Origin: Acidaminococcales bacterium
GTDB lineage: Bacteria; Bacillota; Negativicutes; Acidaminococcales; JAISLQ01
NCBI GenBank assembly: GCA_031290885.1
Contig: JAISLQ010000058.1
Coordinates: 1-33,963, forward strand
Length of the DNA: 33,963 nt
Reading direction: 5' to 3'
A model generated the notes under the pieces. That model did no database searches, had not been told where the DNA came from, and saw only the letters and a program-made list of their open reading frames with translations. Positions 4,311 to 33,963 of the stretch are shown piece by piece (positions within the stretch are counted from its first letter, which is position 1; every line of letters begins with the position of its first letter). The translations under genes were made by a program, and so were the position numbers.

Positions 4311-4359
4311 ATGTGTATGCCGCAAGGCACACAACACTTTTCCCAAGGAGGTCACCACC

Positions 4360-4581: not shown

Positions 4582-4582
4582 G

Positions 4583-4747: not shown

Positions 4748-4760
4748 GGAGGACAAAACA

Positions 4761-6718: not shown

Positions 6719-6736
6719 AAACATTAAGAATTCAGG

Positions 6737-7288: not shown

Positions 7289-7353
7289 AGCAAACACTCC
7301 TTGTTTTACTTACTTTGATAACAACAGCAACTTCAGTATTATCCTATACTTAT

Positions 7354-7383
7354 ATTATATTTCCAACGTAATCTTCACAACAA
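7354..7383 (-). promoter_or_regulatory. Promoter of the minus-strand membrane protein gene
   Basis: Read on the minus strand: TTGTTG (7383-7378), an 18-nt spacer, TATAAT (7359-7354), about 65 nt upstream of the start at 7288. It gives the inserted gene independent expression within a silent prophage. Confidence 0.55.
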
Positions 7384-7401
7384 TTTTCCGGGGGACGCAA
7401 T

Positions 7402-8648: not shown

Positions 8649-9358
8649 AAAGATTCTGGGACTGGGTTAAAAACGAAACAGCGGGCGAGAACAGGATTCT
8701 GCGACTTTACGGCGTCATCGCCGAAGAAGGCTGGCTGGGCGACGAGGTGACGCCCAGGCTGTTCAGGGAGGAACTGCTTGCCGGCGAGGGGGACATCGAT
8801 GTCTGGATACATTCGCCGGGCGGGGAGGCGTTCGCCGCCGCGCAGATCTACAACATGCTCATGGACTACAAATGCAAGGTCACGGTCAAGATAGACGGCC
8901 TGGCAGCCTCCGCCGCCTCGGTCATAGCCATGGCCGGCAGCCGGGTGCTGATGTCGCCCGTGTCCGTCCCGATGGTTCACCGCTCCTCCATGATAGCGGC
9001 GGGCGATTCGGAGGAAATGCTAAGAGCCAAGGCGCTGCTCGACGAGGTGGACGAGAGCGTGGCCAACGCCTACGAGCTAAAGACCGGCCTGCCCCGCGCC
9101 AAGATAGCGAGGATGATGGCCGCCGAAACCTGGATGAGCGACTACAAGGCGGCGGAGCTTGGCTTCGCGGACGAGGTGATGTTCACGGGGGACAGAACGC
9201 CGCAGAACTTTTCGGCGGGCTTCGTCTTCTCCCACCAGGCGGCGGACAGCCCGCCCGCCGGAAACTTTATGGAAAGAACGGGCGGTACAGAGGAAAAGCC
9301 GGGCGGACGGGTGAAGGCTGCCTCGCTTTATCAGCGGCTTAACCTGCTCCGCCGCTGA
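8645..9358 (+). CDS. Head maturation protease, ClpP-related
   Basis: This 237-residue protein starts with GTG 8645, overlapping the portal stop by 4 nt. The ClpP/crotonase-type fold is visible: IDVWIHSPGGEAFAAAQIYN, KIDGLAASAASVIAMAG with the nucleophile Ser in the ASAAS segment, and PMVHRSSM with the catalytic His. A helical region and a WMSDYKAAELGFADEV segment follow. In HK97-type phages it cleaves the capsid delta domain and scaffold during prohead maturation. The last 50 residues (about 185-237) are low-complexity, Gly/Pro-rich. It is intact, although both neighbouring genes (portal and capsid) are frameshifted. Confidence 0.9.
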   Translation: MKRFWDWVKNETAGENRILRLYGVIAEEGWLGDEVTPRLFREELLAGEGDIDVWIHSPGGEAFAAAQIYNMLMDYKCKVTVKIDGLAASAASVIAMAGSRVLMSPVSVPMVHRSSMIAAGDSEEMLRAKALLDEVDESVANAYELKTGLPRAKIARMMAAETWMSDYKAAELGFADEVMFTGDRTPQNFSAGFVFSHQAADSPPAGNFMERTGGTEEKPGGRVKAASLYQRLNLLRR

Positions 9359-9409
9359 ATGTGTTGCCGCAAAAAAAAATATATGCATTATGGACTGGAG
9401 GAAAACCGC

Positions 9410-10610
9410 ATGAACCAAATATTAGAACTGAGGGAAAAACGCGCCAAAGCATGGGACGCGGCCAAGGGATTTTTAGAGAGCAAACGCGGAGAAAATGGGC
9501 TCATGCCCGCCGAGGACGCCGCTATCTATGACCGCATGGAAGCGGACGTGGTGGCTTTAGGCAAAGAAGTTGATCGTCTGGAGCGCCAGGCGGCCCTTGA
9601 CCGGGAACTGGAAAAGCCCGCGAGCGAAAGAATAACAAACAAACCCTCTCCGGGCGGCGAAGAGGAAAATCCCGGCAGATCCGCCGCCGCCGCCTACAAA
9701 CGCGCCTTCTGGAACGCCCTGCGCGGGAAACTGGTGCCGGACGTGCAGAACGCCGCAGCTCGGAACCGACACTGAGGGGGGCTACCTCGCCCCGGACGAG
9801 TTTGAGCGCACCCTTGTTGAAGCCTTGGAAGAGGAAAACATTTTCAGGAAATTAGCCAATGTTATTACAACTTCCTCCGGCGATAGGAAGATACCGGTGG
9901 TGGCGGGCAAAGGCACAGCCTCCTGGGTGGACGAGGAAGGCGCAATCCCGGAGAGCGACGATTCTTTCGGGCAGGTGTCCATCGGGGCGTACAAGCTGGC
10001 CACCATGATTAAAGTTTCCGAGGAACTCCTGAATGACTCTGTTTTCAATCTTGAAAGCTACATCGCCAAAGAGTTTGCCAGAAGGATTGGCGCGAAAGAA
10101 GAGGAGGCCTTCTTTACAGGCAACGGCACAGGCAAGCCGCTCGGGATTCTCGCCGCGACCGGTGGCGGCCAGGCTGTCGTCACCACTGCCGGGGCGACGG
10201 CCATAACTTTAGACGAAATACTGGATTTGTTCTACAGCCTGAAATCCCCCTACAGAAAAAATTCCGTCTTTGTTTTGAACAACGCCACCGTAAAAGCCAT
10301 CCGCAAGCTGAAGGATTCCACAGGCCAATATCTCTGGCAGCCGTCCATCAAGGAAGCCACGCCTGACACCATTATTAACCGTCCCATGCACACTTCGGCC
10401 TACATGCCGGCAATGGCCGCAGGTGCCAAGACCATTGTCTTCGGCGACTTCTCCTACTATTGGGTGGCCGACCGCCAGGGCAGAGTATTTAAGAGGCTGA
10501 ACGAACTGTTCGCCTCCGCCGGGCAGGTGGGCTTCATGGCCTCCCAGCGGGTGGACGGGCGGCTGATTCTCCCGGAAGCGGTGAAGATACTCCAGCAGAA
10601 GGCTTCCTGA
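9410..10610 (+). pseudogene. HK97-family major capsid protein, one frameshift
   Basis: ATG 9410 follows GGAGGA (9398-9403); about 400 codons. Residues 1-100 are the charged, coiled-coil delta domain (LELREKRAKAWDAAKGFLES to DRLERQAALDRELEKP). The capsid fold follows: GGYLAPDEFERTLVEALEE, IPVVAGKGTASWVDEEGAIP, SEELLNDSVFNLESYIAKE, EEAFFTGNGTGKPLGIL and ending QRVDGRLILPEAVKILQQK. Frame is lost at about 9750-9757: the first frame runs to a stop at 9773-9775, while the next frame resumes at QLGTDTEGGYLAPDEF. A one-base difference restores it. The stop overlaps the next start (ATGA at 10608-10612). Confidence 0.9.
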
Positions 10611-10929
10611 TGCAAGGGAAAATGGCCAGCCTCTTAAACGAAGCCAAGGCGCACCTTGGCGTCACTTCCGGTGAGGACGATGCCCTCATAAAAAGTTACC
10701 TGCGCGCCGCCCTCGACTACGCCGAAAAGTATCAGCACCGCGCGGCCATTATGTACGCAGCTCCCTGTCTCCCGGCACCAGGCAGGCCGTCCTCATGCTG
10801 GCCGCCCACTTTTACGAGAGCAGGGACGGCTCGACCGGGGGCTTTTTCGCCGGCAACACCCACGCCGCCCGCGAAACATGGAACGCCGCCAACTCTCTTT
10901 TGCGACTTGACCGGGACTGGCGGGTGTAG
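10610..10929 (+). pseudogene. Head-tail connector (gp6-like), one frameshift
   Basis: The ATG 10610 overlaps the capsid stop. The first frame gives LLNEAKAHLGVTSGEDDALI and KSYLRAALDYAEKYQHRA, typical of the gp6-like connector family (helix bundle at the portal-tail interface). Frame is lost near 10755; the correct continuation is SLSPGTRQAVLMLAAHFYES, then FAGNTHAARETWNAANSLLR and RDWRV before TAG 10927-10929. The restored protein would be about 106 residues, normal for the family. The ribosome stays in the wrong frame to 10945 in the present sequence, overlapping the next gene. Confidence 0.8.
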
Positions 10930-10931
10930 CC

Positions 10932-11246
10932 ATGCGCTTAGATAAAAGGCTTTCCATCTTGAAACCCGTGTACACGGACAACGGCTCGGGCGGCCAGGAT
11001 GTGGAATACATTGAGGATGGAACCCTGCTGGCGAACGTGAAGGAATTGGAGCCAACAAGCGCAAGCGTCCGGGGCAAGGAAGTGAAGATAGCCAAGTATG
11101 AGGCCGTCGCGAGAAAACAAGAAATGCGGGCGGACTGGCGGCTTGTGTATGAAACCCATGTGCTGGAAGTGGAATACATAGGTAATATTGGCGGCGACCC
11201 GCCCTTTTACCTGAAAATATCTTGCCGGGAAGCGAGGAACGCATGA
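10932..11246 (+). CDS. Phage head closure protein (head-tail adaptor)
   Basis: This 104-residue protein starts RLDKRLSILKPVYTDNGSGG and contains a beta-rich core (DWRLVYETHVLEVEYIG, FYLKISCREARNA). This fits the SPP1 gp16-like head closure/adaptor family, which seals the DNA channel after packaging and offers the tail docking surface. It sits 2 nt after the connector gene and overlaps the gp10-like gene by 4 nt (ATGA), preserving the standard order connector - closure - gp10 - tail completion. The reading frame is intact. Confidence 0.85.
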   Translation: MRLDKRLSILKPVYTDNGSGGQDVEYIEDGTLLANVKELEPTSASVRGKEVKIAKYEAVARKQEMRADWRLVYETHVLEVEYIGNIGGDPPFYLKISCREARNA

Positions 11247-11698
11247 GCGCGCGCGGGGATTTTGTCCGCACAAAAGTAAAAGGGATAAAGTAAGCCTTGG
11301 ACAGCATCGGCAAGTATGACTACAAGGTACAGCTGGTAGCCGAGGAAGCCATAAACAAAGGCATAAAGAACATAAGCCGCCTGGCCAAGAACCGCGTCCC
11401 GGTAAGATCGGGAAAACTAAAAAAATCCGGCCGCTCGCGCTTTGACAAAAAGAACATGAGCGGGCGGGCGCAGTTTAACGCATCCTACGCCCACATTGTG
11501 GAGTTCGGCGCAAAGGGGCACAAGGTGAAGCCCAAAAACAAAAAAGCCATGACCGTAAAAGGCCAGGGCGAAACAACCTTAACAAGCAAAGAGGCCAGCG
11601 TTCCGGCTCTCCCGGCGCGGCCTTTTTTGTTTCCCTCTTTCCAGGAGGAAGTACCGAGCATAGAAAAAGAAATACGGGAGGCAATGAAAAAACCGTGA
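11243..11698 (+). pseudogene. HK97 gp10-family tail component with in-frame nonsense codon
   Basis: An ATG at 11243 overlaps the previous stop (ATGA) and encodes MSARGDFVRTKVKGIK, then TAA at 11291-11293. The same frame continues ALDSIGKYDYKVQLVAEEA, NISRLAKNRVPVRSGKLKKS, NASYAHIVEFGAKGHK and ARPFLFPSF, the HK97-gp10 pattern. Reading CAA for TAA would give one unbroken 151-residue protein, normal for the family, so a single C-to-T change explains the stop. Re-initiation at TTG 11297 could still yield 133 residues, but no ribosome binding site is obvious there. In intact phages this protein helps join head and tail. Confidence 0.82.
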
Positions 11699-12015
11699 TC
11701 AGACGCACGCCGCTCTTAGAACTGCAGACGGCTATATATACCCTGCTGAAATCCTACGGCGCGCCGGTTGTGGACAACCCCGCCCAATTGCCGGAGGGGA
11801 CGTATATAAACATCGGGGAGTACACAGGCAGGCCGGAAAGCAGCAAAGACAGGTTTATTCAGGACGTTACCCTTAATCTTCATGTGTACAGCACCCAGCG
11901 GGCAAAAAAGGAAGTAAACGACTATCTTAACGCCATTACCACCATACTGGAAGCGGCCATGCCGGAAGACATCGGCAACGGCGGGAAACAAATCCCCGCG
12001 CCCTGGGTACGCTAA
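11695..12015 (+). CDS. Tail completion protein, DUF3168-like, possibly truncated
   Basis: GTG 11695 overlaps the previous stop by 4 nt; 106 residues. LLELQTAIYTLLKSYGAPVV, a short GTYINIGEYTG strand and FIQDVTLNLHVYSTQRAKKE, followed by an ITTILEAA helix, match the layout of DUF3168/gp17-like tail completion proteins. The typical C-terminal strand region appears missing: after PEDIGNGGKQIPAPW the protein stops at once, and the next ribosome binding site lies 25 nt on. A small deletion or frameshift at the end is likely but cannot be shown from this window. Confidence 0.65.
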   Translation: MIRRTPLLELQTAIYTLLKSYGAPVVDNPAQLPEGTYINIGEYTGRPESSKDRFIQDVTLNLHVYSTQRAKKEVNDYLNAITTILEAAMPEDIGNGGKQIPAPWVR

Positions 12016-12054
12016 GCATTTTAAACCAAAAATACGCAAAGGAGTGAGAAATAA

Positions 12055-12543
12055 TTGCCACAGATAATTCTGCCGGATTTCCCCAATACATCCGAAGCGA
12101 CGGTAGGCAAAGACTATTTAATTTTTATAAAAACAGGCGCGGCGACGCTGGAAGCCTCCACCTACAAACTTATCGGCGGGCAAAGGGGCGGCGACAGAAG
12201 CGTAAAAGCAAACGAAATAGATGCCTCGGACAAAACCTCGGACGGATGGGGCTCATTTTTGCCTGGCACAAAAGAGTGGACGATAGACCTTGACCAGATT
12301 GCCATCTTAAATGACGAGGGCGCGGACACCCTGATGCAGGCACTCCTCAATGACAAAAAAGTATACATTTTACAACGCCACGCGAGCGGCAAAGCGGTCA
12401 AAGGCTGGATGAGCTGCCTTGAGCAGACGCTCGGCTCGCCGCACGATGATGTCGGCACTATTTCCGGCTCCTTGAAGGGCGTGGGCAAGCCGGAATTCGT
12501 GGACAACGAGCCTGACCCGCTGGCCGAAGATGATGAGGATTAG
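12055..12543 (+). CDS. Major tail (tube) protein, TP901-1-like
   Basis: TTG 12055 is taken as start because GGAG (12041-12044) lies 10 nt upstream; 162 residues. The sequence shows the tail-tube pattern: VGKDYLIFIKTG, YKLIGGQRGGDRSVKANEID, SDGWGSFLPGTKEWTIDLDQ and a C-terminal TISGSLKGVGKPEFVD with an acidic tail. Such proteins polymerise into the siphophage tail tube. It is the last recognisable structural gene. The expected chaperones, tape measure and baseplate genes are absent, replaced by a minus-strand Abi gene 20 nt downstream. Confidence 0.82.
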   Translation: MPQIILPDFPNTSEATVGKDYLIFIKTGAATLEASTYKLIGGQRGGDRSVKANEIDASDKTSDGWGSFLPGTKEWTIDLDQIAILNDEGADTLMQALLNDKKVYILQRHASGKAVKGWMSCLEQTLGSPHDDVGTISGSLKGVGKPEFVDNEPDPLAEDDED

Positions 12544-12562
12544 GAATTATGTTCTTATACAT

Positions 12563-13486
12563 TCAACGCCGCTTTTTAGACCATCTGTTTCTAACACGAA
12601 AGATGCGTTGAATGCCTTTAGGCTCAGACCCTTTGCGCAATGTCTTTTTCCAGTCGGGAGGAAAACCGATATGCTTTAATTGCACCACTTGCGCATATTG
12701 TTCAGTCAGAGCGGTTATTTCAGATAGAACCTCAGCATCCCACTTGCGTTTGTCAGGGTAAAGCTCCTTTGCAGCCAATATAGCTCCAAACAGTCGCCGC
12801 TTGCTGTCCGCGCTTGCGTTAGCAAAACCGGCGGGGATCGCACTAAAAATACGGTAATATAACCTGCCATAATGGGCGCAAATGTTGCGCAAGTCAGTAT
12901 AGCAGCGCAGCCAACTCTTAACATTCCCCGGCATTGAGTTAAAAAGGCTTTTGGCGAGATACTTTTGGTCGGGAACAAGCAAGTCGGCATAAAATTTAGA
13001 CAGCATGCCGAAAGTGAATATTTCCATTATTACCCAGATGGGGAAAAGTCCGGCGTATTTTTGATTATGGTGCCGCACAAAAAGTGTCGTGCTGTTGTTT
13101 TGTTTTTCTTTATCTATATGCGCAATAAATTTGTCATGCGAGTGCGAACTGTTGTAGTTATTGGCATCTAAATAGCCGGCTGCGCCATATTTGTGCGCGT
13201 GGTAATAAGCGATTTGCGCCTTCACGTAGACTTCAATTTCTTCAATGGCAGAAAAAAGAACGCGGCGCAGTTTCATGTCAAATTCGTACATTTTGAACAC
13301 TGTATAGAAATTGGTTCCCGGCCTATAAGCGCCGTCAGCCTGCTTGAAAGGCAGAAAATATGCGGAGAGTCTGTAATAGTTAAGTTGCGACAAAACTTGT
13401 TCACAGAATTTCTCATCTGAAATAGTGCAACCCCTGACGCGCAACTTTTCCATCTGCTGCTTATAGGACGCAGGCTGTTTCAACAA
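12563..13486 (-). CDS. Abi_2 (AbiD/AbiF) family abortive-infection protein
   Basis: This 307-residue protein on the minus strand matches the Abi_2 layout. The N-terminus (YKQQMEKLRVRGCTI) leads to the hallmark LNYYRLSAYFLPFK. A FDMKLRRVLFSAIEEIEVYV helix and IWVIMEIFTFGMLSKFY follow, then RNICAHYGRLYYR, an R-x4-H HEPN-type motif expected of an RNase. AbiD/F proteins protect against phages by stopping the infected cell; the target here is unknown. Start TTG 13486 has GGAG about 10 nt upstream. The opposite orientation and its position where tail genes should be suggest later insertion or retention as useful cargo. No partner antitoxin gene is visible. Confidence 0.85.
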   Translation of the reverse strand: MLKQPASYKQQMEKLRVRGCTISDEKFCEQVLSQLNYYRLSAYFLPFKQADGAYRPGTNFYTVFKMYEFDMKLRRVLFSAIEEIEVYVKAQIAYYHAHKYGAAGYLDANNYNSSHSHDKFIAHIDKEKQNNSTTLFVRHHNQKYAGLFPIWVIMEIFTFGMLSKFYADLLVPDQKYLAKSLFNSMPGNVKSWLRCYTDLRNICAHYGRLYYRIFSAIPAGFANASADSKRRLFGAILAAKELYPDKRKWDAEVLSEITALTEQYAQVVQLKHIGFPPDWKKTLRKGSEPKGIQRIFRVRNRWSKKRR

Positions 13487-14354: not shown

Positions 14355-14703
14355 TGGTGGAGGCGAGGGGAGTCGAACCCCTGTCCAAAAGCATTGACGC
14401 AAGACTTTCTCCGGGCGCAGCCGCTTGTTTGAGCGTCGTTCATAAAGCGCCAGGCGGCGGGCTCTTTATTCACCAGCCCAGATTAATTTCCCGCAAGGCT
14501 CCTCCGGGCGAAAAGCCACACGGTAGCCCACGAAATGACGCCTCATCCGGGTTAGTGGGCGCAACCCGGCGAAACGTTAACGGCTTAAGCCGCTAATGCA
14601 AAATTATCTTCTGCGTTTATAAAGGCCCACCGTTTTACGGTCTGATGGAACACCGGCTCGCTTATCTTGCCACAACTGCCCCTGTCGAAACCAGTACGCC
14701 CCC
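14355..14703 (-). ncRNA. ssrA: tmRNA (ssrA)
   Basis: Transfer-messenger RNA that rescues stalled ribosomes and tags the nascent peptide for proteolysis. On the minus strand the 5' end GGGGGCG (14703-14697) pairs with the 3' acceptor strand CGCCTCC, followed by ACCA ending at 14355. The T arm (GGGGTTCGACTCCCC) is present and the tRNA-like start CTGGTTTCGACAGGGGC is typical. The tag reading frame ends with codons for AEDNFALAA and then TAA near 14591, the usual C-terminal ALAA. The resume codon is most likely the GCA of that tag. The CCA is encoded. Length 349 nt is normal. The 3' end of ssrA is a common integration target, and a phage remnant lies on that side. Confidence 0.95.
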
Positions 14704-21406: not shown

Positions 21407-24235
21407 ATGCTTTTATCACAGCAAGCAAAGGCGCTTTGGGCAAAAGCGGCCAAGTCTGGCGGCGGTTGGCTGCCGCTTTACAAGCACATGGAAGATGCCG
21501 CCATAGTGGCGGAACTGCTATGGGATAACTGGCTGCCGCCAGGAACCAAGGATATTGTTGCCCGCGCCATTGCCGACGGCAGTGCCTGCTTTGCCCTGGA
21601 AGATGCGCGGGCCAAGGCGCGGAAAACATTCATATTTCTGGCGGCGGCCCATGATTTAGGCAAAGCCACGCCTGCTTTTCAGTATAAAAAGATATATCCT
21701 AATGCCGAAATAGGCGAGCAATTGGCCGAGCGGCTGAAAAGAGCGGGATTGATTGCGAAAAGAATGCAAGACCCCTACGCGATACATCATTCGCTGGCAT
21801 CTCAGGCCATATTGGAACGGCGCGGCTTTACCCGCGCAATTGCGGTGGTATTAGGCGGGCATCACGGCAAGCCGCCCTCAATTTATGACATTGACGATGA
21901 CAATATCAACGCTTACCCCAACAATACAGGTTTTAAGGACAAAGCGGCATGGGGCGCCGCGCAGTCGGAATTGTTCAATTATGCCTGTCAACTGGCGGAT
22001 ATGCCTGTGGACGAAGAGGAACTTTTACGTACCCTGGCATTGGACATTCCCGCGCAAGTTATTTTAAGCGGCCTTGTCATCATGGCGGATTGGTTAGCCA
22101 GCGACGAAAACCGTTTCCCTTATCTTGACGGCAATGATTTTAACTTAAAAATTCCCGTGCGTAAAAGAGCGGCCGATGCCTGGGAGAACATAGGATTGTC
22201 ACGTTGGGCGGCAACGGAGGAATGGGCGAAAGCGGATCTTTACAAAACGCGTTTTGACAAAGAGGCGCGACCGGTGCAGAAGGCAGCTGTCGCCGTCGCC
22301 GCGGCGACAAAGGCGCCCGGACTTTTCATTGTTGAAGCGCCGATGGGCGAGGGAAAAACGGAAGCGGCCTTGGCTGTAGCGGAGATTTTCGCGCAAAAGA
22401 GCGGACGGGGAGGCTTGTTTTTTGCCCTGCCCACGCAGGCCACCTCCGATGGAATATTTGTCCGCTTTAAAAATTGGGCGGACAAAATAGCAAAAGTGGC
22501 GGGCGGTATCTACTCGCTTTCATTGGCGCACGGCAAGGCGCGTTTGAACGAAGAATACCGGGGGTTGAAAGCTCACCCGCAAGGAATTGAGGATGCGGAA
22601 GGAGGCGTGGTGGCGCAGGCATGGTTCAGCGGGCGCAAGAAGAGCCTGTTGGCGGATTTTGTCGTCGGCACCGTCGATCAGGCGCTAATGGCCGGACTGA
22701 GGCAGAAACATCAGGCCATGCGGCATCTCTCCTTGGCCAACAAGGTGGTGATCATTGACGAGTGCCACGCCTATGACGCCTACATGAGCCAGTACCTCTA
22801 CAAAGCGCTGAACTGGCTGGGCGCTTACCGAGTGCCGGTCATACTGCTGTCGGCCACTTTGCCTGTGGGCAAAAGGCAAGACTTAATCAACGCTTATAAA
22901 GGCGGCCAAGCGGAAAATGGGGCAAACCTATCTTTGGCTTTTATGCGGGGCTACCCTATAATCACATCTACCGACGGCGGCGAAGCGGGGCAAACGGTGG
23001 TGGCTCCTTCTGAGCGCGGCATAGATGTTTCTTTGTCGTGGCTTTACGAGGATGCGGACATTGAAACGGCAGACGAAGGGGAACTGCCGATAATCGAAAA
23101 AATAGCGGACATACTCGACGAATATTTATCAGGCGGCGGTTGCGTTGGAATTATCGTCAACACCGTGCGGCGCGCGCAAAAAATTGCCCAGGGATTGGCG
23201 GCGCGTTACGGCACGGAAAATGTTCGTCTGCTACATTCCCGCTTTATCGGGGCTGACCGCGTTGCGAACGAGATGAAAATCAGAGAATTGTTGGGAGCGC
23301 CAACTAAAGAAAATACCGTAAAGCGTCCCGAAAAACTCATTGTTGTCGGCACGCAAGTGATGGAACAATCGCTCGATGTAGATTTTGACCTGCTTTTTAC
23401 CGATATTTGCCCGATGGATCTGTTGCTGCAAAGAATCGGACGTCTGCATCGGCACGAACGCCCAAGGCCGGAAAAGTTGCGAAAGGCGGTTTGTTTTATT
23501 ACTGGCGCACAAAAAGAAGGATTTGAAGCCGGAGCGGAGAAAATATATGGTAAATATCTTTTGTTTAACACTCAGCAATTGCTTTTGTCCAAGTTGGTTT
23601 TAAACCTGCCGGCAGACATTCCCGGACTGGTGGATGCGGCTTACGACCCGGACGGCGTAGATGTCGCGCCCGATTTGCAAGCTGAATACGCCGAAGCTAA
23701 ACACCGGCAGGAAAACAAAATAAAAGAGAAGACAAACAGGGCAGACCAGTTCCAGATTTTCAAGCCGGGCAAAGGGGAAAATCTCGGTACGCTTATTGAT
23801 TGGCTGGACATTGGCGTCAACGATCCTACCGGCAAAAGGGCGGAAGCGACGGTACGCGACACGGACAACTCGTTGGAAGTTATTGTTTTGCAAAAACGCC
23901 GCAGCAAGGTTTATTTGCTTCCCTGGCTGGATAAATCTGGCGGGCGGGAAATCTCCCGCGAGCGATCGCCCGACGAAGATATCGCGGCGAAGCTGGCCGC
24001 CTGCACGGTAAATTTACCGGGAAATTTTTCTTCTCCTAAGGTGATTGATGCTGCGATTGGCGAGCTTGAACAAAATAACATTGACGAAGGTTTGTCGGCC
24101 TGGCAGCAATCGCCTTGGCTGAAGGGGGAGTTGTTTTTGTTGTTGGACGAAAACCTTTCGGCGCGCTTAGGCGGCTATACGCTTAAATACGATGAAAAAT
24201 ACGGTCTGTGGGTGGAAAAGGCAGGTGAAGAATGA
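21407..24235 (+). CDS. cas3: CRISPR-associated nuclease/helicase Cas3 (type I-E)
   Basis: The 942-residue effector nuclease recruited by Cascade to unwind and degrade target DNA. The HD nuclease domain is N-terminal: His27 (LYKHMEDAA), His82-Asp83 (AAHDLGK), later HHSLASQAI and GGHHGKPP. The SF2 helicase shows Walker A APMGEGKTEAAL (about residue 315), DECH box VVIIDECHAYDAY (about 450), LLSATLP, and motif VI LLLQRIGRLHRHERP. All key residues are present, so it should be active. Start ATG 21407 has AAGGGG upstream. The stop overlaps casA (ATGA), so the whole cas set is probably one operon. No strong promoter is visible in the 46-nt gap before it. Confidence 0.96.
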   Translation: MLLSQQAKALWAKAAKSGGGWLPLYKHMEDAAIVAELLWDNWLPPGTKDIVARAIADGSACFALEDARAKARKTFIFLAAAHDLGKATPAFQYKKIYPNAEIGEQLAERLKRAGLIAKRMQDPYAIHHSLASQAILERRGFTRAIAVVLGGHHGKPPSIYDIDDDNINAYPNNTGFKDKAAWGAAQSELFNYACQLADMPVDEEELLRTLALDIPAQVILSGLVIMADWLASDENRFPYLDGNDFNLKIPVRKRAADAWENIGLSRWAATEEWAKADLYKTRFDKEARPVQKAAVAVAAATKAPGLFIVEAPMGEGKTEAALAVAEIFAQKSGRGGLFFALPTQATSDGIFVRFKNWADKIAKVAGGIYSLSLAHGKARLNEEYRGLKAHPQGIEDAEGGVVAQAWFSGRKKSLLADFVVGTVDQALMAGLRQKHQAMRHLSLANKVVIIDECHAYDAYMSQYLYKALNWLGAYRVPVILLSATLPVGKRQDLINAYKGGQAENGANLSLAFMRGYPIITSTDGGEAGQTVVAPSERGIDVSLSWLYEDADIETADEGELPIIEKIADILDEYLSGGGCVGIIVNTVRRAQKIAQGLAARYGTENVRLLHSRFIGADRVANEMKIRELLGAPTKENTVKRPEKLIVVGTQVMEQSLDVDFDLLFTDICPMDLLLQRIGRLHRHERPRPEKLRKAVCFITGAQKEGFEAGAEKIYGKYLLFNTQQLLLSKLVLNLPADIPGLVDAAYDPDGVDVAPDLQAEYAEAKHRQENKIKEKTNRADQFQIFKPGKGENLGTLIDWLDIGVNDPTGKRAEATVRDTDNSLEVIVLQKRRSKVYLLPWLDKSGGREISRERSPDEDIAAKLAACTVNLPGNFSSPKVIDAAIGELEQNNIDEGLSAWQQSPWLKGELFLLLDENLSARLGGYTLKYDEKYGLWVEKAGEE

Positions 24236-25842
24236 TGAAAGAAGTTGAAAAAGATTTTGATTTGCTTAATAACCGATGGATTCTGGTTTTAAACGCAAAA
24301 GGCGAGGTTGAGGAGATATCTTTGCTGGAATTTTTCCGCCGGGCGCACGAACTGAAAAGTTTGGCCGGAGAACTCGTGACGCAGGATGTGGCGATGCTGC
24401 GGCTGCTGCTCGCGATAGTTTATGCCGTCTTTACCAAGTTTGACGCGAACGGCAATCCGTCGCCCCTAAAAAATATTAGTGACGCGCTAAAACGCTGGGA
24501 ACAAATCTGGCAATTGCGTCAATTCCCTTTGGGGGCAATAGAAAAATATCTAAAAAAATACGAAGAGAGATTTTACCTTTTTCATCCCGAAAGGCCATTT
24601 TATCAGGTTCCTGCCCTTGACAAGGGAACGCCTTATTCCGCCGCCAAGCTTATGGGCGATTTGTCGGAAAGCAGCAACAAAGTAAGATTGTTTGCGTTAA
24701 AGACAGGCAGAGGGAAAAAACATGTCGGCAAAGCGGAAGCCGCCAGATGGCTTTTGCATTTGAATGCCTTTGACGATACGTCAAGCAAGCCATCAACACG
24801 GGGGGCAGGTCTGCCTTCGATCGGGGCTGGCTGGCTTGGCAAATTGGGCTTGGTTTTTGCCGTTGGAGCCAACATGTTTGAAACTTTGCTGCTGAACTTT
24901 GTTTTAGCTGATGAGAAACAAACCGTCTTTAGCAACGGGAAAACTACTTGGGAACAAGATAAAATCAACAAAGCCGAAAGAGTGAAAATTTCCGTTCCCG
25001 ATAGCATGCCGGAACTGTTGACTTTGCAATCGCGCCGTGTTTTGCTGGAAAAAACTGCGGACGGCGAATATGTCAGTGGGTACAAGTTACTGGGCGGCGA
25101 TGGATTCGAGAAAGATAACGCCGTTATTGAGCAAATGACTTTGTGGAATACAAAGGTAAACGGCAATCTTACTGTTTTTTCGCCAAAGCGCCATGACCCC
25201 GCGCGATTTTTGTGGCGGGATTTCCCGGCGCTTGTCGCTAACAGCCAAGATTTTAGGAAGCCTGGCGTTGTGCGTTGGGTTGGCATCTTGAAAAATCAAA
25301 AACTGATTGGCAACAAATTGGCAAGTTTTCAAACCGCAAGCATAAAATATGGAGACAAAGATTTTTTTATTGATGACGTTTTCAGCGATTCTATTACCTT
25401 AAACGCCGATTTGCTGACGGAGTTGGGCGGGGAATATGTCGGCAGGATTGTTGGCTTGCTGGACAAAACCGACAAATGCGTGAAAGCGTTGGGCTACTTG
25501 GCCGCCAATATTGCCGCAGCTGCCGGCGGCAGCGAGGTTCAAAACATAAGCGGCGTCAGTGAGGAAGCCCGCGAACAAGCATATTTTTCTTTGGACAAGC
25601 CGTTTCGCAATTGGTTGGCAGGCGTCGACCCGGAAAAAGACGATCTTGACGACATTGCCGCCGAATGGCTGCAAAAAATGAGCAGGATTGTTACTAAGCA
25701 AGGGGAGCAAATAGTCGCGCAAGCCGGGGAGAAGGCTTTTGTCGGCAGGTATAAAGAAATAAAGGGCAAGCGGGTTGCGCAGACGGCGGCAAAGGCGTTT
25801 TCGAGTTTTAAAATGGCAATAAAAAATACAATTAATGGTTAG
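24232..25842 (+). CDS. casA: Cascade large subunit Cas8e (CasA/Cse1)
   Basis: This 536-residue large subunit of type I-E Cascade recognises the PAM and recruits Cas3. The N-terminal signature DFDLLNNRWILVLNAKGEVE and LLEFFRRAHELKSLAGELV is characteristic of Cse1, as is the segment FYLFHPERPFYQVPAL. The C-terminal third is helical (four-helix bundle; KPFRNWLAG, IAAEWLQKMSRIV). ATG 24232 overlaps the cas3 stop; a second in-frame ATG lies at 24235. It ends 18 nt before casB. Intact. It has diverged from the E. coli protein, as is normal for this fast-evolving subunit. Confidence 0.93.
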   Translation: MMKEVEKDFDLLNNRWILVLNAKGEVEEISLLEFFRRAHELKSLAGELVTQDVAMLRLLLAIVYAVFTKFDANGNPSPLKNISDALKRWEQIWQLRQFPLGAIEKYLKKYEERFYLFHPERPFYQVPALDKGTPYSAAKLMGDLSESSNKVRLFALKTGRGKKHVGKAEAARWLLHLNAFDDTSSKPSTRGAGLPSIGAGWLGKLGLVFAVGANMFETLLLNFVLADEKQTVFSNGKTTWEQDKINKAERVKISVPDSMPELLTLQSRRVLLEKTADGEYVSGYKLLGGDGFEKDNAVIEQMTLWNTKVNGNLTVFSPKRHDPARFLWRDFPALVANSQDFRKPGVVRWVGILKNQKLIGNKLASFQTASIKYGDKDFFIDDVFSDSITLNADLLTELGGEYVGRIVGLLDKTDKCVKALGYLAANIAAAAGGSEVQNISGVSEEAREQAYFSLDKPFRNWLAGVDPEKDDLDDIAAEWLQKMSRIVTKQGEQIVAQAGEKAFVGRYKEIKGKRVAQTAAKAFSSFKMAIKNTING

Positions 25843-25860
25843 GGGTGAAACAAAAACGCA

Positions 25861-26493
25861 ATGAACGATTATGAAAGGATAAAAATTTTTGTCCGAAAGA
25901 AAATTATTCTGCTTGACAAAGAGACCCCTTGGGCGAAGGCCGCTTTGGCCAAGCTTCGGCGCGGCGCAGGCAAACCACCCGGAGAAACGCCGGAAATCTT
26001 TGACGTTACTTTAGGGAATCTGCCGGAAGAATTGGCCAGCCGGGGAAAAATTGCCGAAAGCGGACCCACGCGGGCCGAATGGGCCATCCATACCGTTCTG
26101 ACCCTTTATGCTTTGCACCGGCAAGGGAAAGCAGCGACCATGAACATGGAAACAAAGGAGATCGCAGGCAAGAAAATATATGGCAATTCGCTCGGGGCAG
26201 CCGCCCGCAAACTTGTGAAAAGCGACAATGAAGAAACTATAAAAAGGCGCTTTGACACTATTGCCACCGCAAAAGATCTTGCCGAGCTTGCGCACCATGC
26301 CCGGGGTTTGGTGCAGCTGTTCAAAGCCGATGACATACCCTTGGACTACCCCCGTTTGGCCGAAGATTTATATTGGTATCAGTTTCCTGACCATCAGAAT
26401 AAATTAATATTGCGCTGGGGGGAGGATTTTTGGCGGGGGACAAGCGGAAACGAGCGGGAAATAGATAAAGAACAAAAAGAAGGAGCAAAATAA
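25861..26493 (+). CDS. casB: Cascade small subunit Cas11e (CasB/Cse2)
   Basis: A 210-residue, mostly helical protein. WAKAALAKLRRGAGKPPGET and EWAIHTVLTLYALHRQGKAA match the Cse2 family. Two copies of it form the belly of the Cascade complex and stabilise the displaced strand. The C-terminal LAEDLYWYQFPDHQNKLILR followed by RWGEDFWRG is also typical. The start ATG 25861 has a GGGGTGA element some 13 nt upstream. Its stop overlaps the casC start (TAATG). Function is assigned from sequence pattern and operon position, which agree. Confidence 0.92.
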   Translation: MNDYERIKIFVRKKIILLDKETPWAKAALAKLRRGAGKPPGETPEIFDVTLGNLPEELASRGKIAESGPTRAEWAIHTVLTLYALHRQGKAATMNMETKEIAGKKIYGNSLGAAARKLVKSDNEETIKRRFDTIATAKDLAELAHHARGLVQLFKADDIPLDYPRLAEDLYWYQFPDHQNKLILRWGEDFWRGTSGNEREIDKEQKEGAK

Positions 26494-27587
26494 TGATGAA
26501 AAAAGTGTTTGTCGATTTTCACGTCATCCAGACCGTGCCGCCCAGTTGCGTCAACCGCGATGACACCGGCAGCCCCAAAACCGCCGTTTATGGCGGAGTG
26601 CGCCGTGCGCGCGTATCTTCACAGAGTTGGAAGCGCGCTATGAGAAAGATGTTTCGTGAACATTTTGACGAATTTGAATTGGGGCAGCGCACCAAAAAAA
26701 TCGTTGCGCTTGTGGCGGAAAAAATAAGTGCTTGTGACAAGGCGAAGAGTGAAGAGCAAAGCAAAAAACTTGCGGAAGAAATTATCAACCTTGCCGGTGT
26801 AACGACTAAAGACGCGGAAGCCAAAGCGTTATTTTTCATGACCGGCAAACAAGCGGAAAACCTCGCCGGGCTCGTTCTCGACAGGGATTTTGGCTCAAAA
26901 AAAGATACGCAAAAGAAAAAAGAAGCGCAAATCGCCCTCAATAAAAACCAAGGCGTTGACATAGCCTTATTTGGCCGCATGGTAGCGGACGACCCTTCGC
27001 TTAATGCCGACGCATCCGCCCAGGTGGCGCATAGCATATCCACCCACCGCGTGGACAATGAATACGACTACTTCACCGCCGTTGACGACTTGGCGCCGGA
27101 GGACAACGCCGGCGCCGGCATGATCGGCACGGTAGAATACAACTCATCCACCCTTTATCGCTACGCTACAGTAGCCGCCCATGAACTTTTTAAACAATTG
27201 GCGGAAGAGCCGGACGCGCTCGCCAAAGCAATAAAAGAATTTGCCCGCGCTTTTATCGCCTCCATGCCGGATGGCAAGCAAAATACCTTTGCCAACCGCA
27301 CCTTGCCGGATGCCGTGCTTGTTGCCGTGCGCGCGGATCAACCGGTAAACCTGGCCGGCGCTTTTGAGGAAGCGATAAGAAGCAAAGAAGATGGCTTCGT
27401 CAAAGAATCCATCAAAAAATTAAAAGGTCATGCCCAAAAAGTTTATGGGGAATTCGCCTGTGCGCCGGCCAAAAGTTACGTGATTAACGCCGACTTGTCC
27501 GAACTTGGCGTGCCAGTCGATTTTAAGACTTTGCTGGACGAACTGGAAAAAGAAATGAAAGACAGATTTTCTCCGGGAAACAATTAA
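26493..27587 (+). CDS. casC: Cascade backbone subunit Cas7e (CasC/Cse4)
   Basis: This 364-residue RRM-fold protein polymerises (six copies in E. coli) along the crRNA spacer. Characteristic segments are FVDFHVIQTVPPSCVNRDD, RRARVSSQSWKRAMRKMF, DIALFGRMVADDP and AHSISTHRVDNEYDYFTAVD, then GAGMIGTVEYNSSTLYRYAT. AAGGAG lies 11 nt upstream of the ATG at 26493, which overlaps the casB stop; a second ATG follows at 26496. Length and motifs are those of a complete protein. Confidence 0.95.
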   Translation: MMKKVFVDFHVIQTVPPSCVNRDDTGSPKTAVYGGVRRARVSSQSWKRAMRKMFREHFDEFELGQRTKKIVALVAEKISACDKAKSEEQSKKLAEEIINLAGVTTKDAEAKALFFMTGKQAENLAGLVLDRDFGSKKDTQKKKEAQIALNKNQGVDIALFGRMVADDPSLNADASAQVAHSISTHRVDNEYDYFTAVDDLAPEDNAGAGMIGTVEYNSSTLYRYATVAAHELFKQLAEEPDALAKAIKEFARAFIASMPDGKQNTFANRTLPDAVLVAVRADQPVNLAGAFEEAIRSKEDGFVKESIKKLKGHAQKVYGEFACAPAKSYVINADLSELGVPVDFKTLLDELEKEMKDRFSPGNN

Positions 27588-27601
27588 CGGCGGGGATGAC
27601 T

Positions 27602-28305
27602 ATGAGCACATTATTGATTAGACTGGCCGGGCCGCTCCAAGCATGGGGGACGGACAGCAAATTCAACAAAAGGATGACCGGGCGCGAACCCACGAAAAGC
27701 GGAGTTGTTGGCCTCGTGGCCGCCGCGCTCGGCCTTAGGCGCACGGACGATGCCGCCAAACTATGCAAGCTCCGCTTCGGCGTACGGGTGGATCAGCCGG
27801 GAAAACTTGTTGTGGATTTTCATACGGCTCGCAGGCATGATGGGAAATCTGATATAACACATCGCTATTACATAGCTGACGCCGTGTTTTTGGCAGGGCT
27901 GGAAGGAGAGGAGCCTCTGCTAAAGGAAATTGACGCCGCCTTGAAGACACCGTGGTTCCCTCTCTTCTTGGGGCGGCGCGCCTGTCCGCCGGTCGGCCAA
28001 CTTTCGTTGGGCGTAAGAGATGGCGCGGCCCTTATGGAAGCCTTGCGCGATGAACCGTGGCAAGCCGCCGGCTGGTATAAAGCAAAAACCGAACGCGCAG
28101 AAATGGAAATAGTCCGCGATGCCGTGCCGGAAGATAACTATGCCTTTACTGTTCGCGACCAGCCCCTTTCTTTTGACCAAGTACATCGCCGGTATACTTT
28201 CCGTCCGGTTGTCAGCGATATAAACGCCGTAAAAATCATTAACCTTGCCCAAAAACCTGATTTGCCGGAAACGCCGACAAGCCACGATGCCATGGCGGAG
28301 GTGCC

Positions 28306-28309
<4 letters not shown>
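27602..28309 (+). CDS. casD: Cascade subunit Cas5e (CasD)
   Basis: The Cas5e subunit binds the 5' handle of the crRNA and caps the Cas7 backbone. The start TTLLIRLAGPLQAWG-like pattern (here STLLIRLAGPLQAWGTDSKF) and GREPTKSGVVGLVAAALGLR are the family hallmark. HTARRHDGKSDITHRYYIAD and FPLFLGRRACPPVGQLSLG follow. ATG 27602 is preferred over ATG 27596 because GGGG (27592-27595) then lies at proper spacing; 235 residues. The C-terminus overlaps casE by 4 nt. No catalytic role is expected, since Cas6e does the processing in type I-E. Confidence 0.94.
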
Positions 28310-30034
<1,725 letters not shown>

Positions 30035-30035
<1 letters not shown>

Positions 30036-30931
30036 TGGTAGTGATAACGCTTACCAATTGCCCGGCCGCCCTGTGCGGTGATTTGACAAAATGGCTGCTG
30101 GAAATCGGCGCAGGAATTTTTGTCGGAAAGGTCAGCGCCCGTGTGCGGGAAAATATCTGGGAACGGGTAAAGAAAGCCGCCAAAAAGGGCAGGGCGACTA
30201 TGGCTTACAGCGCAAACAACGAGCAGCGGCTTGACTTTAAAGTGCATAACGGCGAATGGGAACCTATTGATTTTGACGGTATAAAGCTGATGTTGCACCC
30301 GAGCCCGGCCCGCACAAGAAAATTGAGCGGAATAAGGCTCGGCTACAGCAAGGCCAGCCGGTATCAAGCGATAAAACGTCGGGCAGCCTTTAAGCTGCGG
30401 GAGGAAGCATTGCCGGCATCGTATGTGGTCGTGGATATTGAAACATCCGGACTGTCGGCACGCAAAGACGCGATTGTCGAAATCAGCGCCTTACAGGTAA
30501 CCGACGGCAAGACATTAAATACTTTCAGCGCATTAATTCGCGGCGATGTCCCTATTTCCGCCGAAATAGAAGAAATGACGGGGATTACCAATCCTATGTT
30601 GCAAAAAGAGGGGCGGGAACTTGCGCTGGTACTCCCGGAATTTCTTGATTTTATAGGGCGCTCCCCTATTATTGCCCATAATGCGCCGTTTGACATCAAT
30701 TTTCTCAATGAAGCCTGCCAAAAACATTCCTGTGTTCCGCTTGCCAACAAATGCATAGACACTCTTTCGTTGTCCAAAAAAATTGTTCAGGGTGCGAAAA
30801 GGCATACTTTAACAGCGATGGCAGAATATTTTGGCATAAATATGACGTCCGCGCACAGAGCGTTATCAGACTGCTTTGCAACAAAAGAATTATATGAAAA
30901 ACTAAAAGAAATGCAAACTGAAAAAAATTAA
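30035..30931 (+). CDS. cas2: Cas2e fused to DEDDh (DnaQ-like) 3'-5' exonuclease
   Basis: This 298-residue fusion starts at ATG 30035 (TGATG overlap with cas1, GGAGG 30023-30027 upstream). Residues 1-95 are type I-E Cas2 (VVITLTNCPAALCGDLTKWL, GIFVGKVSARVRENIWERV). After a basic linker (about 96-128), residues 129-298 form a DEDDh exonuclease with Asp134-x-Glu136 (VVDIETSGL), Asp220 (HNAPFDINFL) and His274/Asp279 (AHRALSDCFAT). All catalytic residues are present. Such Cas2-DnaQ fusions are known in S. thermophilus CRISPR4 and Megasphaera-related systems. There the exonuclease trims prespacer 3' ends to spacer length before integration. The unusual 429-nt first spacer next to it is notable in that light. 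Confidence 0.95.
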
Positions 30932-30960: not shown

Positions 30961-30988
30961 AACTTCCCCGCGCAAGCGGGGGTGATCC
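30961..30988 (+). repeat. Leader-proximal CRISPR repeat, isolated from the rest
   Basis: Exact copy of the array repeat, 29 nt after cas2 and 429 nt before the next repeat. Together with the repeat at 31418 it flanks the anomalous insert on both sides, as Cas1-Cas2 integration with repeat duplication would produce. Confidence 0.95.
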
Positions 30989-31081
30989 TCTGATGGTGGT
31001 TTCCTTGGTGAAGTTAAAACTAATGCTCGTGAAATTGGTAATTGGCTTTCTGATCTTAATCCTTTTGGTTCAAGGTGGTGA
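30989..31081 (+). CDS. 3' end of a phage-like ORF in the insert (30 codons, 5' truncated)
   Basis: The frame is open from the first base after the repeat and ends with TGA 31079-31081. The residues are SDGGFLGEVKTNAREIGNWL followed by a short SDLNPFGSRW tail. Codons are strongly T-ending. The order (end of a larger protein, then small peptides) and the NPFG-type ending would suit the C-terminus of a microvirus pilot protein (VP2-like). That identity is a guess from weak resemblance. It has no start codon of its own and is presumably not expressed as a protein here. Confidence 0.45.
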   Translation, partial: SDGGFLGEVKTNAREIGNWLSDLNPFGSRW

Positions 31082-31085
31082 TTTT

Positions 31086-31184
31086 ATGTCTTGGACTTTA
31101 CTTGCTCAAATTGTTAACTTTTTTATTCTTTTTGTTATTTTGTTTTTGGTTTTTCGTATTCTTTGGCGTTTAGGTTCTAAATAA
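31086..31184 (+). CDS. Small membrane peptide (32 aa) in the insert
   Basis: ATG 31086 lies 4 nt after the previous stop, with AAGGTGGTG (31072-31080) as ribosome binding site. The 32-residue peptide is one hydrophobic helix (LAQIVNFFILFVILFLVF) with a basic end RILWRLGSK. Tiny single-helix proteins of this kind are common in small ssDNA phages. The in-frame extension upstream to 30993 is rejected because it overlaps the first fragment and lacks a ribosome binding site. Confidence 0.45.
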   Translation: MSWTLLAQIVNFFILFVILFLVFRILWRLGSK

Positions 31185-31224
31185 TTTCTGGTATTTTCAA
31201 ATTTGGTGATTAGAGGTGTCTCTT

Positions 31225-31332
31225 TTGTTTGGTAAAATTATTCGTTTTTGTGTTGCTGTATGGGCTATTTTCTTCACTATCGCTTTAATTGTTGTTCTTT
31301 GTCATACTCTTTATTGGAATCTCTTTCGATAA
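31225..31332 (+). CDS. Second small membrane peptide (35 aa) in the insert
   Basis: TTG 31225 follows AGAGGTG (31212-31218) at 6 nt. The peptide reads FGKIIRFCVAVWAIFFTIAL and continues IVVLCHTLYWNLFR: basic N-terminus, one long hydrophobic helix, basic C-terminus. No known family recognised. Same T-rich codon use as the rest of the insert. Confidence 0.4.
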   Translation: MFGKIIRFCVAVWAIFFTIALIVVLCHTLYWNLFR

Positions 31333-31371
31333 TTTTGTGTAAGTAAATTTTATATAAAAGAGGTGAATATT

Positions 31372-31419
31372 ATGGCAAAACGCGCTCAGCTCTCAAAATC
31401 CGGATCCAAGCGACTTTAA
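31372..31419 (+). CDS. 5' end of a small basic phage protein, truncated at the repeat
   Basis: ATG 31372 follows AAGAGGTG (31358-31365). The frame gives MAKRAQLSKSGSKRL and is then cut: the last insert base T plus the first two repeat bases make a stop. The Lys/Arg/Ser-rich start resembles the small DNA-binding proteins of gokushovirus-type microviruses, whose sequences continue with Phe after KRL. Here the remaining CTT-T would also allow Leu-Phe. The assignment is by pattern only. Confidence 0.45.
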   Translation: MAKRAQLSKSGSKRL

Positions 31420-33963
31420 CTTCCCCGCGCAAGCGGGGGTGATCCCGTGACGCCCGCGGCGGCACACGCTACACCGAAAACTTCCCCGCGCAAGCGGGGG
31501 TGATCCATACCGGAATAATAGATCTAATCTCTGAACGTAAACTTCCCCGCGCAAGCGGGGGTGATCCCAGATTGCGATGTGCTATTAAGCAAGTTGGCCG
31601 AACTTCCCCGCGCAAGCGGGGGTGATCCACGCGATTTCAATCTCGCCCGCCGCGCTGGTTACAACTTCCCCGCGCAAGCGGGGGTGATCCTCGCTTCTTG
31701 CCCAAGGCATAGACTTTCATGGCAACTTCCCCGCGCAAGCGGGGGTGATCCGACTTCATCGACCGCGCCGATACTGATGTTGCAACTTCCCCGCGCAAGC
31801 GGGGGTGATCCTATCCGGCATAGGCTCGCGCAAGGACATCACTACAACTTCCCCGCGCAAGCGGGGGTGATCCTAGAGATTTCTATAATCCTCAAACCCC
31901 CACCTGAACTTCCCCGCGCAAGCGGGGGTGATCCCTATAAGCTGCGCCGCGTCCCCTGCGGCTATGTCAACTTCCCCGCGCAAGCGGGGGTGATCCGTGC
32001 TACAAAGGCATCCCGATGGAGACCGTCGCTAACTTCCCCGCGCAAGCGGGGGTGATCCGATGACGAAAAATTATTCATGCAGCCAGATACTAACTTCCCC
32101 GCGCAAGCGGGGGTGATCCTGCGCACTATACCTTGGTATCCGACCTGGACAGAACTTCCCCGCGCAAGCGGGGGTGATCCTTGAGTACGGACACATTGAT
32201 ATCCCTCTTAGTCGAACTTCCCCGCGCAAGCGGGGGTGATCCGATAAAGGGAGCGTGTAACATAATGACGAATAAAACTTCCCCGCGCAAGCGGGGGTGA
32301 TCCTCACTTTTTTTCACCTCACAAAAAAAAATTTCAAACTTCCCCGCGCAAGCGGGGGTGATCCTTGCGTTTTACAGCGTTGTAGATATGTGCAAAGAAC
32401 TTCCCCGCGCAAGCGGGGGTGATCCGAGGGATATCGATATGTCCATACTCTATCCGCTAACTTCCCCGCGCAAGCGGGGGTGATCCTCTGCCGTTGGCTT
32501 ATGCGACTGTATGCACAGCAACTTCCCCGCGCAAGCGGGGGTGATCCTCATACAAATAAAATTTATCGTTGTCGCCGTCCAACTTCCCCGCGCAAGCGGG
32601 GGTGATCCTATACATTTCCATTATAATATCTGCGGGTTCACAACTTCCCCGCGCAAGCGGGGGTGATCCTATCATTTGATTTGGTTAATACCTGAATAAT
32701 CTAACTTCCCCGCGCAAGCGGGGGTGATCCCGGACATAAAGCCCGGCGTCAGGACATCGGAAAAACTTCCCCGCGCAAGCGGGGGTGATCCTGACAGAAA
32801 ATTCAGACATTAAAAGTGAATGACAACTTCCCCGCGCAAGCGGGGGTGATCCTATTTTTATCTGCGGCAAAAAGAGTACGGCCAGAACTTCCCCGCGCAA
32901 GCGGGGGTGATCCTCGCTTAGCCGCTATAGCGCCATTGTCAACAAAAAACTTCCCCGCGCAAGCGGGGGTGATCCTAAAATTTTTGCTTCTTACAAATAT
33001 TGGGACACAACTTCCCCGCGCAAGCGGGGGTGATCCTCCTCTTGGCAAAAAAGGCCACGGAGCTTGGCTAACTTCCCCGCGCAAGCGGGGGTGATCCTTA
33101 GTGACTAGAAGATTCTTATCAGGTGTATTTAACTTCCCCGCGCAAGCGGGGGTGATCCCTTGGTATGTCGATGGTGCTTTTTACGTCGTCGAACTTCCCC
33201 GCGCAAGCGGGGGTGATCCTTTCCTGGTCGTTCAAAAAGGCTTGCTTTATGGAACTTCCCCGCGCAAGCGGGGGTGATCCGTTACTTTTTTGTCTTTCTT
33301 CCCGCGCTGCGCGAACTTCCCCGCGCAAGCGGGGGTGATCCCTCTTTTATTGGCCGACCCTTTCCGCTATGCCGAACTTCCCCGCGCAAGCGGGGGTGAT
33401 CCTTCAAGACGTCCGCCGAATTCTGGACAAAGACTAACTTCCCCGCGCAAGCGGGGGTGATCCGTCGGCGCGCTTTTCATGGTCATGGGGACGGGCAAAA
33501 AACTTCCCCGCGCAAGCGGGGGTGATCCTCGTCAGGCGAGGCCCCGTATTCGTCAAAGGCAAACTTCCCCGCGCAAGCGGGGGTGATCCCGGCGGCGGAG
33601 CATGACAAGCTGGCCAATGAAAAACTTCCCCGCGCAAGCGGGGGTGATCCCTTTCTTACGGTGCTTTTCCAAAAGGTCGGTGAAACTTCCCCGCGCAAGC
33701 GGGGGTGATCCTGGACTAAATTTTACTAAATAATCCTCTGCGATAACTTCCCCGCGCAAGCGGGGGTGATCCGATACCTGGAAGGCGGCGCTGCTTGTTT
33801 GGGACAACTTCCCCGCGCAAGCGGGGGTGATCCTCATCCAAATCAACCACACCCTAACAAAAGATAAACTTCCCCGCGCAAGCGGGGGTGATCCACTACA
33901 TCAGCGAAGGCGCGGGCGGGGCGACCAAACTTCCCCGCGCAAGCGGGGGTGATCCTACTCCAA

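What the first reader, a model, noticed from the sequence alone, without database searches (positions are those of the whole stretch)
30961..31445. A 429-nt giant spacer flanked by two perfect CRISPR repeats at the leader end
Every other spacer is 32-37 nt, but the first interval is 429 nt. It sits in the leader-proximal (newest) position, is bounded precisely by intact repeats, and its composition and content are foreign. Both ends interrupt open frames, as expected for a random piece of an invading genome. Normal type I-E integration has a strict length ruler, so a fragment about 13 times too long would mean integration without trimming, stepwise capture, or recombination. Alternatives are an assembly chimera or an insertion into an existing spacer. 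If real, it raises the question of whether a long transcript from this unit is processed or targets a phage over an extended region.
Basis: partly seen in the sequence, partly recalled or inferred. Interest (0 to 1): 0.9.

Follow-up and report, generated by a model that had tools for sequence, protein, structure and literature searches.

The report
Phage DNA wedged into CRISPR array
A bacterial CRISPR memory array appears to hold one entry 13 times too long; the entry is a real piece of a small phage (a gokushovirus), but it is more likely two normal entries stitched together through the phage genome, probably by assembly software, than one giant captured fragment.

Summary
Two identical 28-nt repeats (30961-30988, 31418-31445) flank 429 nt, whereas the other 41 complete spacers are 32-37 nt. 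The insert is gokushovirus (Microviridae) DNA in native order: the C-terminus of VP2, two tiny hydrophobic ORFs, and the start of the small basic VP8-like gene. The next spacer (31446-31478) matches gokushovirus capsid gene VP1 (32/33 identities to KT264813), so the newest entries record gokushovirus attack. The array sits beside a type I-E cas operon with a Cas2-DEDDh fusion. A characterised relative of that integrase needs a 23-bp duplex, and arrays beside other Cas2-DEDDh genes are rigidly spaced: in 71 arrays (1,614 intervals) only one other has a comparable leader-end insert of known sequence. Neither repeat-phage junction shows homology, so both are probably true spacer edges. The simplest account is two ordinary spacers from one phage, joined through the phage genome by the assembler (or, less likely, by recombination). 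A toy de Bruijn graph reproduces this at k=31-33. Evidence against: the array's PAM is 5'-AA, and the right-hand 33-mer lacks AA in normal orientation. The source phage was not found, and reads were not available. Giant capture is not excluded (about 0.2).

The parts
21407..29007 (+). type I-E interference genes: cas3 (21407-24235), cse1/cas8e (24232-25842), small subunit ORF (25861-26493), cas7/CT1975 (26493-27587), cas5-like ORF (27596-28309), cas6-like ORF (28306-29007)
   Evidence: Pfam Cas3_HD, CRISPR_Cse1, Cas_CT1975; cse2, cas5 and cas6 named from order and size only
28974..30035 (+). cas1
   Evidence: Pfam Cas_Cas1, E=1.6e-15
30032..30931 (+). cas2 fused to a DEDDh exonuclease (trimmer-integrase subunit)
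   Evidence: Pfam Cas_Cas2CT1978 residues 2-86 and RNase_T residues 132-288; D135, E137, D221, H275, D280 conserved with a relative
30961..30988 (+). repeat R1 (leader end)
   Evidence: identical to 42 other copies
30989..31417 (+). 429-nt gokushovirus insert between R1 and R2
30989..31081 (+). C-terminus of gokushovirus VP2 (SDGGFLGEVKTNAREIGNWLSDLNPFGSRW, stop)
   Evidence: tblastn to VP2 of MK496752 and MN862338, 69% over 16 aa; C-termini
31086..31184 (+). tiny hydrophobic ORF (32 aa)
   Evidence: reading frame with upstream ribosome-binding-like AGGTGGTG; no family
31216..31332 (+). tiny hydrophobic ORF (38 aa, GTG start)
   Evidence: no family
31372..31417 (+). first 15 codons of a VP8-like basic gokushovirus protein (MAKRAQLSKSGSKRL)
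   Evidence: profile match from position 1, above all frames of 5,000 shuffles; 69% to several microviruses
30989..31021 (+). putative ordinary spacer S1 under the join model
   Evidence: inference; left PAM unknown
31385..31417 (+). putative ordinary spacer S2 under the join model
   Evidence: inference; preceded by GCG, not AA
31418..31445 (+). repeat R2
31446..31478 (+). spacer 2, gokushovirus VP1 (RDARGGTRYTE)
   Evidence: 97% to KT264813.1 and matches in 27 microvirus records; motif in over 100 viral contigs
31418..33963 (+). rest of the array: 42 repeats, 41 complete spacers, cut by the contig end

Best explanation
The 429-nt 'spacer' is most likely two ordinary spacers acquired from one gokushovirus (S1 next to R1, S2 next to R2) that have been fused through the genome of that phage, losing the short repeat between them. 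The likeliest agent is the assembler: at k up to about 35 spacer and phage share k-mers, the short S1-repeat-S2 edge can be pruned when phage coverage is higher, and the host path is threaded through the phage stretch. Shown: the phage identity of the insert, its exact edges, and a neighbouring spacer from the same virus group. Inferred: that S1 and S2 were separate spacers, and that the join was made in the assembly rather than in the cell.
For: The insert is contiguous gokushovirus DNA in native gene order and strand. The adjacent spacer is from gokushovirus VP1, so repeated acquisition from such phages did occur. Neither edge shows phage-repeat homology, so both edges look like real spacer edges (sequence). 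The integrase belongs to a kind with a strict 23-bp duplex ruler (PMC10284694), has intact DEDDh residues, and 1,595 of 1,614 intervals in 71 comparable arrays have a period of 57-63 nt. The assembly is a draft whose contig breaks inside this array. A toy graph with two ordinary spacers plus a co-occurring phage yields exactly host-429 nt-host at k=31-33 when phage coverage exceeds host coverage; feasibility only. A comparable locus, L136, has an N gap at the same leader-end position. Short-read assembly of arrays is known to give chimeric contigs (PMC6617893).
Against: The array's PAM is 5'-AA (six of eight spacers matching the L153 prophage, a seventh with one-base slip), but the last 32-34 nt of the insert are not preceded by AA. 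It fits only if S2 is 37 nt (one of 41 spacers has that length), flipped (the phage probably continues TT or TC) or had an atypical PAM. Assemblers that finish at k of 55 or more would avoid the join unless small-k contigs are carried over. No phage contig is in the bin. No reads were available.
Confidence: 0.55

Rival explanations
1. Genuine giant capture: Cas1-Cas2/DEDDh (or Cas1 acting in a casposase-like, two-ended manner) inserted a 429-bp piece of the phage's double-stranded replicative form as one unit, bypassing the ruler.
For: Exact repeat borders, leader-end position, contiguous phage DNA, both ends inside genes. The missing AA before S2 is then unproblematic. A second leader-end oversized interval (331 nt, single copy) exists beside a Cas2-DEDDh gene in L090, on a 322-kb contig.
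Against: Biochemistry of the nearest studied integrase: only a 23-bp duplex is tolerated and trimmed (PMC10284694). No such event in the other surveyed arrays apart from L090. No report found under several phrasings of long or giant spacer.
Confidence: 0.2
2. Recombination in the cell: two ordinary spacers recombined with the infecting phage genome across the short spacer homologies, replacing the repeat between them with the intervening phage DNA.
For: Gives the same product as the assembly join and explains the exact borders; S1 plus the following AA gives up to 35 nt of homology.
Against: Requires two crossovers in about 33 nt each, and meets the same PAM problem at S2.
Confidence: 0.1
3. 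Insertion into an existing spacer by a mobile element or other illegitimate insertion.
For: L090 shows that oversized intervals can hold non-phage DNA.
Against: No terminal inverted repeats of an element (the only inverted pair found is a 12-nt match that reaches into R2); single copy; no residue of a host spacer at the edges, since phage reading frames run to both repeats.
Confidence: 0.05
4. The block is a leader or other host element, not phage.
For: It is AT-rich, as many leaders are.
Against: It lies after a perfect repeat; related loci have the first repeat at similar distance from cas2 without such a block; it encodes gokushovirus peptides; only short chance matches in 381 genomes of the class.
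Confidence: 0.02

Closest known systems
Type I-E CRISPR-Cas with Cas2-DEDDh trimmer-integrase (Megasphaera NM10-related, PMC10284694)
   Same: Cas1 plus Cas2 fused to DEDDh, 33-nt spacers, 5'-AA PAM on the spacer strand (TT on the overhang), array directly after cas2
   Different: One 429-nt interval, which that integrase's ruler would not make
Gokushovirinae / Microviridae genomes (KT264813, MK496752, MN862338, PQ006405, MG945701)
   Same: Insert carries VP2 C-terminus and VP8-like N-terminus in the same order and strand; spacer 2 matches VP1
   Different: No close relative in the collections searched; two tiny ORFs between VP2 and VP8 have no recognised relative
Leader-end 331-nt interval in L090 (JAUNIB010000002, Selenomonadaceae MAG)
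   Same: Cas2-DEDDh array, first interval oversized, identical repeats on both sides, single copy
   Different: No phage similarity found; its last 34 nt would be preceded by AA, as two fused spacers would
Casposase integration (Cas1 homologues that insert long DNA, PMC6977970)
   Same: Shared Cas1 chemistry would allow long DNA to be joined at both ends (only under the giant-capture rival)
   Different: No casposon ends; Cas2-DEDDh present; not shown here

Membership tests
Type I-E CRISPR-Cas with Cas2-DEDDh | cas3, cse1, cas7, cas1 and Cas2-DEDDh genes beside the array | tested here: met
   Pfam hits
Type I-E CRISPR-Cas with Cas2-DEDDh | intact DEDDh catalytic residues | tested here: met
   D135, E137, D221, H275, D280 conserved; activity not tested
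Type I-E CRISPR-Cas with Cas2-DEDDh | 5'-AA PAM for ordinary spacers | tested here: met
   six of eight spacers on L153, a seventh with one-base slip, one not; spacer 27 in G035 also AA
CRISPR spacer (ordinary) | length set by the ruler, about 33 nt | tested here: not met
   429 nt
Join of two ordinary spacers | S2 (last 32-34 nt) preceded by AA PAM in normal orientation | tested here: not met
   preceded by GCG / CGC; a 37-nt S2 would be preceded by AAAA
Join of two ordinary spacers | S1 preceded by AA PAM in the phage | not testable with these tools
   source phage not found
Join of two ordinary spacers | reads with S1-repeat and repeat-S2 junctions, depth step over the insert | not testable with these tools
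   no raw reads
Gokushovirinae (origin of the insert) | VP8-like basic protein start downstream of VP2 | tested here: met
   profile match at model position 1, above all frames of 5,000 shuffles; order as
Gokushovirinae (origin of the insert) | VP1 and replication protein genes | not testable with these tools
   insert too short; spacer 2 alone matches VP1
Mobile element in a spacer | terminal inverted repeats or several copies | tested here: not met

The most novel reading that the evidence does not exclude
A Cas2-DEDDh type I-E integrase inserted a 429-bp duplex of an ssDNA phage's replicative form as one unit, each end joined to one side of the repeat in a casposase-like manner, giving a natural giant spacer in a live array.
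Probability: 0.2. Interest if true: 0.78.

Novelty: not a real feature. Interest (0 to 1): 0.36.

Why it matters
If the giant interval is real, it breaks the length ruler that defines spacer acquisition and makes casposase-like long integration by Cas1-Cas2 testable. If it is the join argued for here, it describes a recognisable artefact: 'giant leader-end spacers' made when new spacers and the phage they come from are assembled together. That can be screened for, and it also flags a host-phage pair. Either way, the newest entries of this array link the host to gokushoviruses.

Tried and rejected
Searches for the source phage found nothing close: VP2 end, VP8 start (relaxed form, one distant hit) and the middle ORF in viral contigs; the insert's DNA in phage records and in 381 genomes of the class (short chance matches only). 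No microvirus capsid gene is in the genome's own bin. The exact repeat in genome contigs gave nothing. The only other genome of the genus, G001, has no Cas2-DEDDh match and only a repeat-like fragment, so no near strain could be compared. Considered and rejected: leader or host element, transposon in a spacer, conserved block in relatives. That 429 = 13 x 33 was noted and treated as coincidence. In the survey, L136's 287-nt first interval is an N gap and L071's 123 lies near a contig start and was read as a missed repeat (not inspected further). Protospacer matches with 6-8 mismatches in other families of the class show no consistent PAM and are taken as chance.

Full report
OBSERVATION. The window ends with a CRISPR array of 43 identical 28-nt repeats beginning at 30961. 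The first interval, 30989-31417, is 429 nt. The other 41 complete spacers are 33 nt (33), 34 (6), 32 (1) and 37 (1). R1 follows the cas2 stop by 29 nt, and arrays beside other Cas2-DEDDh genes start at comparable distances, so R1 is plausibly the leader-end repeat. The insert is 32% GC and 46% T and occurs once in the 2.13-Mb, 85-contig genome. The contig ends inside the array.

WHAT THE INSERT IS. The left edge is inside a frame ending EIGNWLSDLNPFGSRW*, which matches VP2 C-terminal regions of two gokushovirus-type genomes at 69% over 16 aa. The right edge cuts an ORF starting MAKRAQLSKSGSKRL, preceded by a ribosome-binding-like AGAGGTG. It aligns from position 1 to a profile of microvirus VP8-like basic proteins and scores above every frame of 5,000 shuffles; it is 69% identical to several members. 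In these viruses the VP8-like gene lies downstream of VP2 on the same strand. Two tiny hydrophobic ORFs lie between. The insert is therefore a gokushovirus segment in native order. The individual database E-values are weak because the peptides are short; the case rests on two independent ends agreeing in family, order and strand, plus spacer 2.

THE NEIGHBOURING SPACER. Spacer 2 (31446-31478) encodes RDARGGTRYTE of gokushovirus VP1, with 32 of 33 identities to KT264813 and hits in 27 microvirus records. A degenerate form of the motif hits at least 120 viral contigs. The newest entries thus derive from gokushoviruses.

THE INTEGRASE AND THE PAM. Cas2 is fused to a DEDDh exonuclease with conserved catalytic residues. 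Eight spacers match one contig of the sister species (L153) with 2-8 mismatches. Six are preceded by AA, spacer 5 (34 nt) fits AA with a one-base slip, and spacer 42 does not; spacer 27 in G035 is also preceded by AA. This agrees with the TT PAM on the overhang strand of Megasphaera Cas1-Cas2/DEDDh (PMC10284694). Spacer 2's protospacer is preceded by GAA in 31 and GAG in 57 of 88 microvirus sites. [quoted passage not shown]

SURVEY. Of 80 loci with Cas2-DEDDh relatives, 71 gave arrays with 1,614 intervals, 1,595 of which have a period of 57-63 nt. Three first intervals are abnormal: L136 is an N gap in the assembly, L071 is a two-unit interval near a contig start, and L090 holds a 331-nt single-copy sequence without recognisable phage genes. 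Other long intervals lie mostly at the distal ends of arrays. Oversized leader-end intervals are therefore rare.

HOW IT MOST LIKELY AROSE. Neither edge has phage-repeat homology long enough for an assembler to jump there, so R1|phage and phage|R2 should be real spacer edges. Two ordinary spacers from one phage plus the phage genome give a graph in which S1 and S2 are shared nodes; S1 is followed by AA in both contexts, making 35 shared bases. In a toy graph with host at 20x and phage at 80x, deleting low-coverage short edges at k=31-33 removes the S1-repeat-S2 edge and leaves host-429 nt-host; at equal coverage and k=33 it does not, and at k=55 nothing is shared. The toy used random filler for the rest of the phage and one simple pruning rule, so it shows feasibility only. 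Chimeric contigs are a recognised problem in short-read assembly of CRISPR arrays (PMC6617893).

EVIDENCE AGAINST THE JOIN. The last 32-34 nt of the insert are not preceded by AA. A 37-nt S2 would be preceded by AAAA, and a flipped S2 would have its PAM if the phage continues TT. That is plausible but unseen: the next codon is Phe in 35 of 36 homologues, and Phe is TTT in 9 of 12 cases in the insert, but TTC is commoner in the homologues. I judge that this lowers the odds of the join about sixfold, against a prior that strongly favours it. That weighting is judgement, not a computed result. The phage was not found, so the left PAM is untested.

VERDICT. The giant-capture reading remains possible (about 0.2) but is not the best supported. 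Two ordinary gokushovirus spacers joined through the phage, most likely in the assembly (0.55) or less likely in the cell (0.1), explain it with known processes. Raw reads would decide. The novelty label 'not a real feature' applies to the giant interval, not to the array or to its gokushovirus content.

Noticed in passing
L090:6983-7313 (JAUNIB010000002, Selenomonadaceae MAG): A second Cas2-DEDDh array whose leader-end interval is oversized (331 nt, single copy, no phage match); its last 34 nt would be preceded by AA. Another 568-nt interval closes the same array.
   Followed up: partly
L153 (G001:C189) and window array: Eight spacers of the array match one phage-like contig of the sister species at 2-8 mismatches, giving a 5'-AA PAM.
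   Followed up: yes
window 172-13486 and 14355-14703: A prophage (terminase, portal, capsid; Pfam) lies near a tmRNA gene, and an Abi_2-family gene sits at 12563-13486 on the minus strand beside it. No spacer of the array matches it within 7 mismatches.
   Followed up: partly
window 31086-31332: Two tiny hydrophobic ORFs between VP2 and VP8 of the gokushovirus insert, with no recognised family; possibly membrane or lysis peptides.
   Followed up: partly
window 33464-33500: Spacer 35 is 37 nt and ends in AAAA before the repeat's AA, the only other length outlier of the array.
   Followed up: no
L136:6938-7153: The leader-end interval of this Cas2-DEDDh array is a run of N, i.e. an assembly gap at exactly the newest spacer position.
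   Followed up: partly
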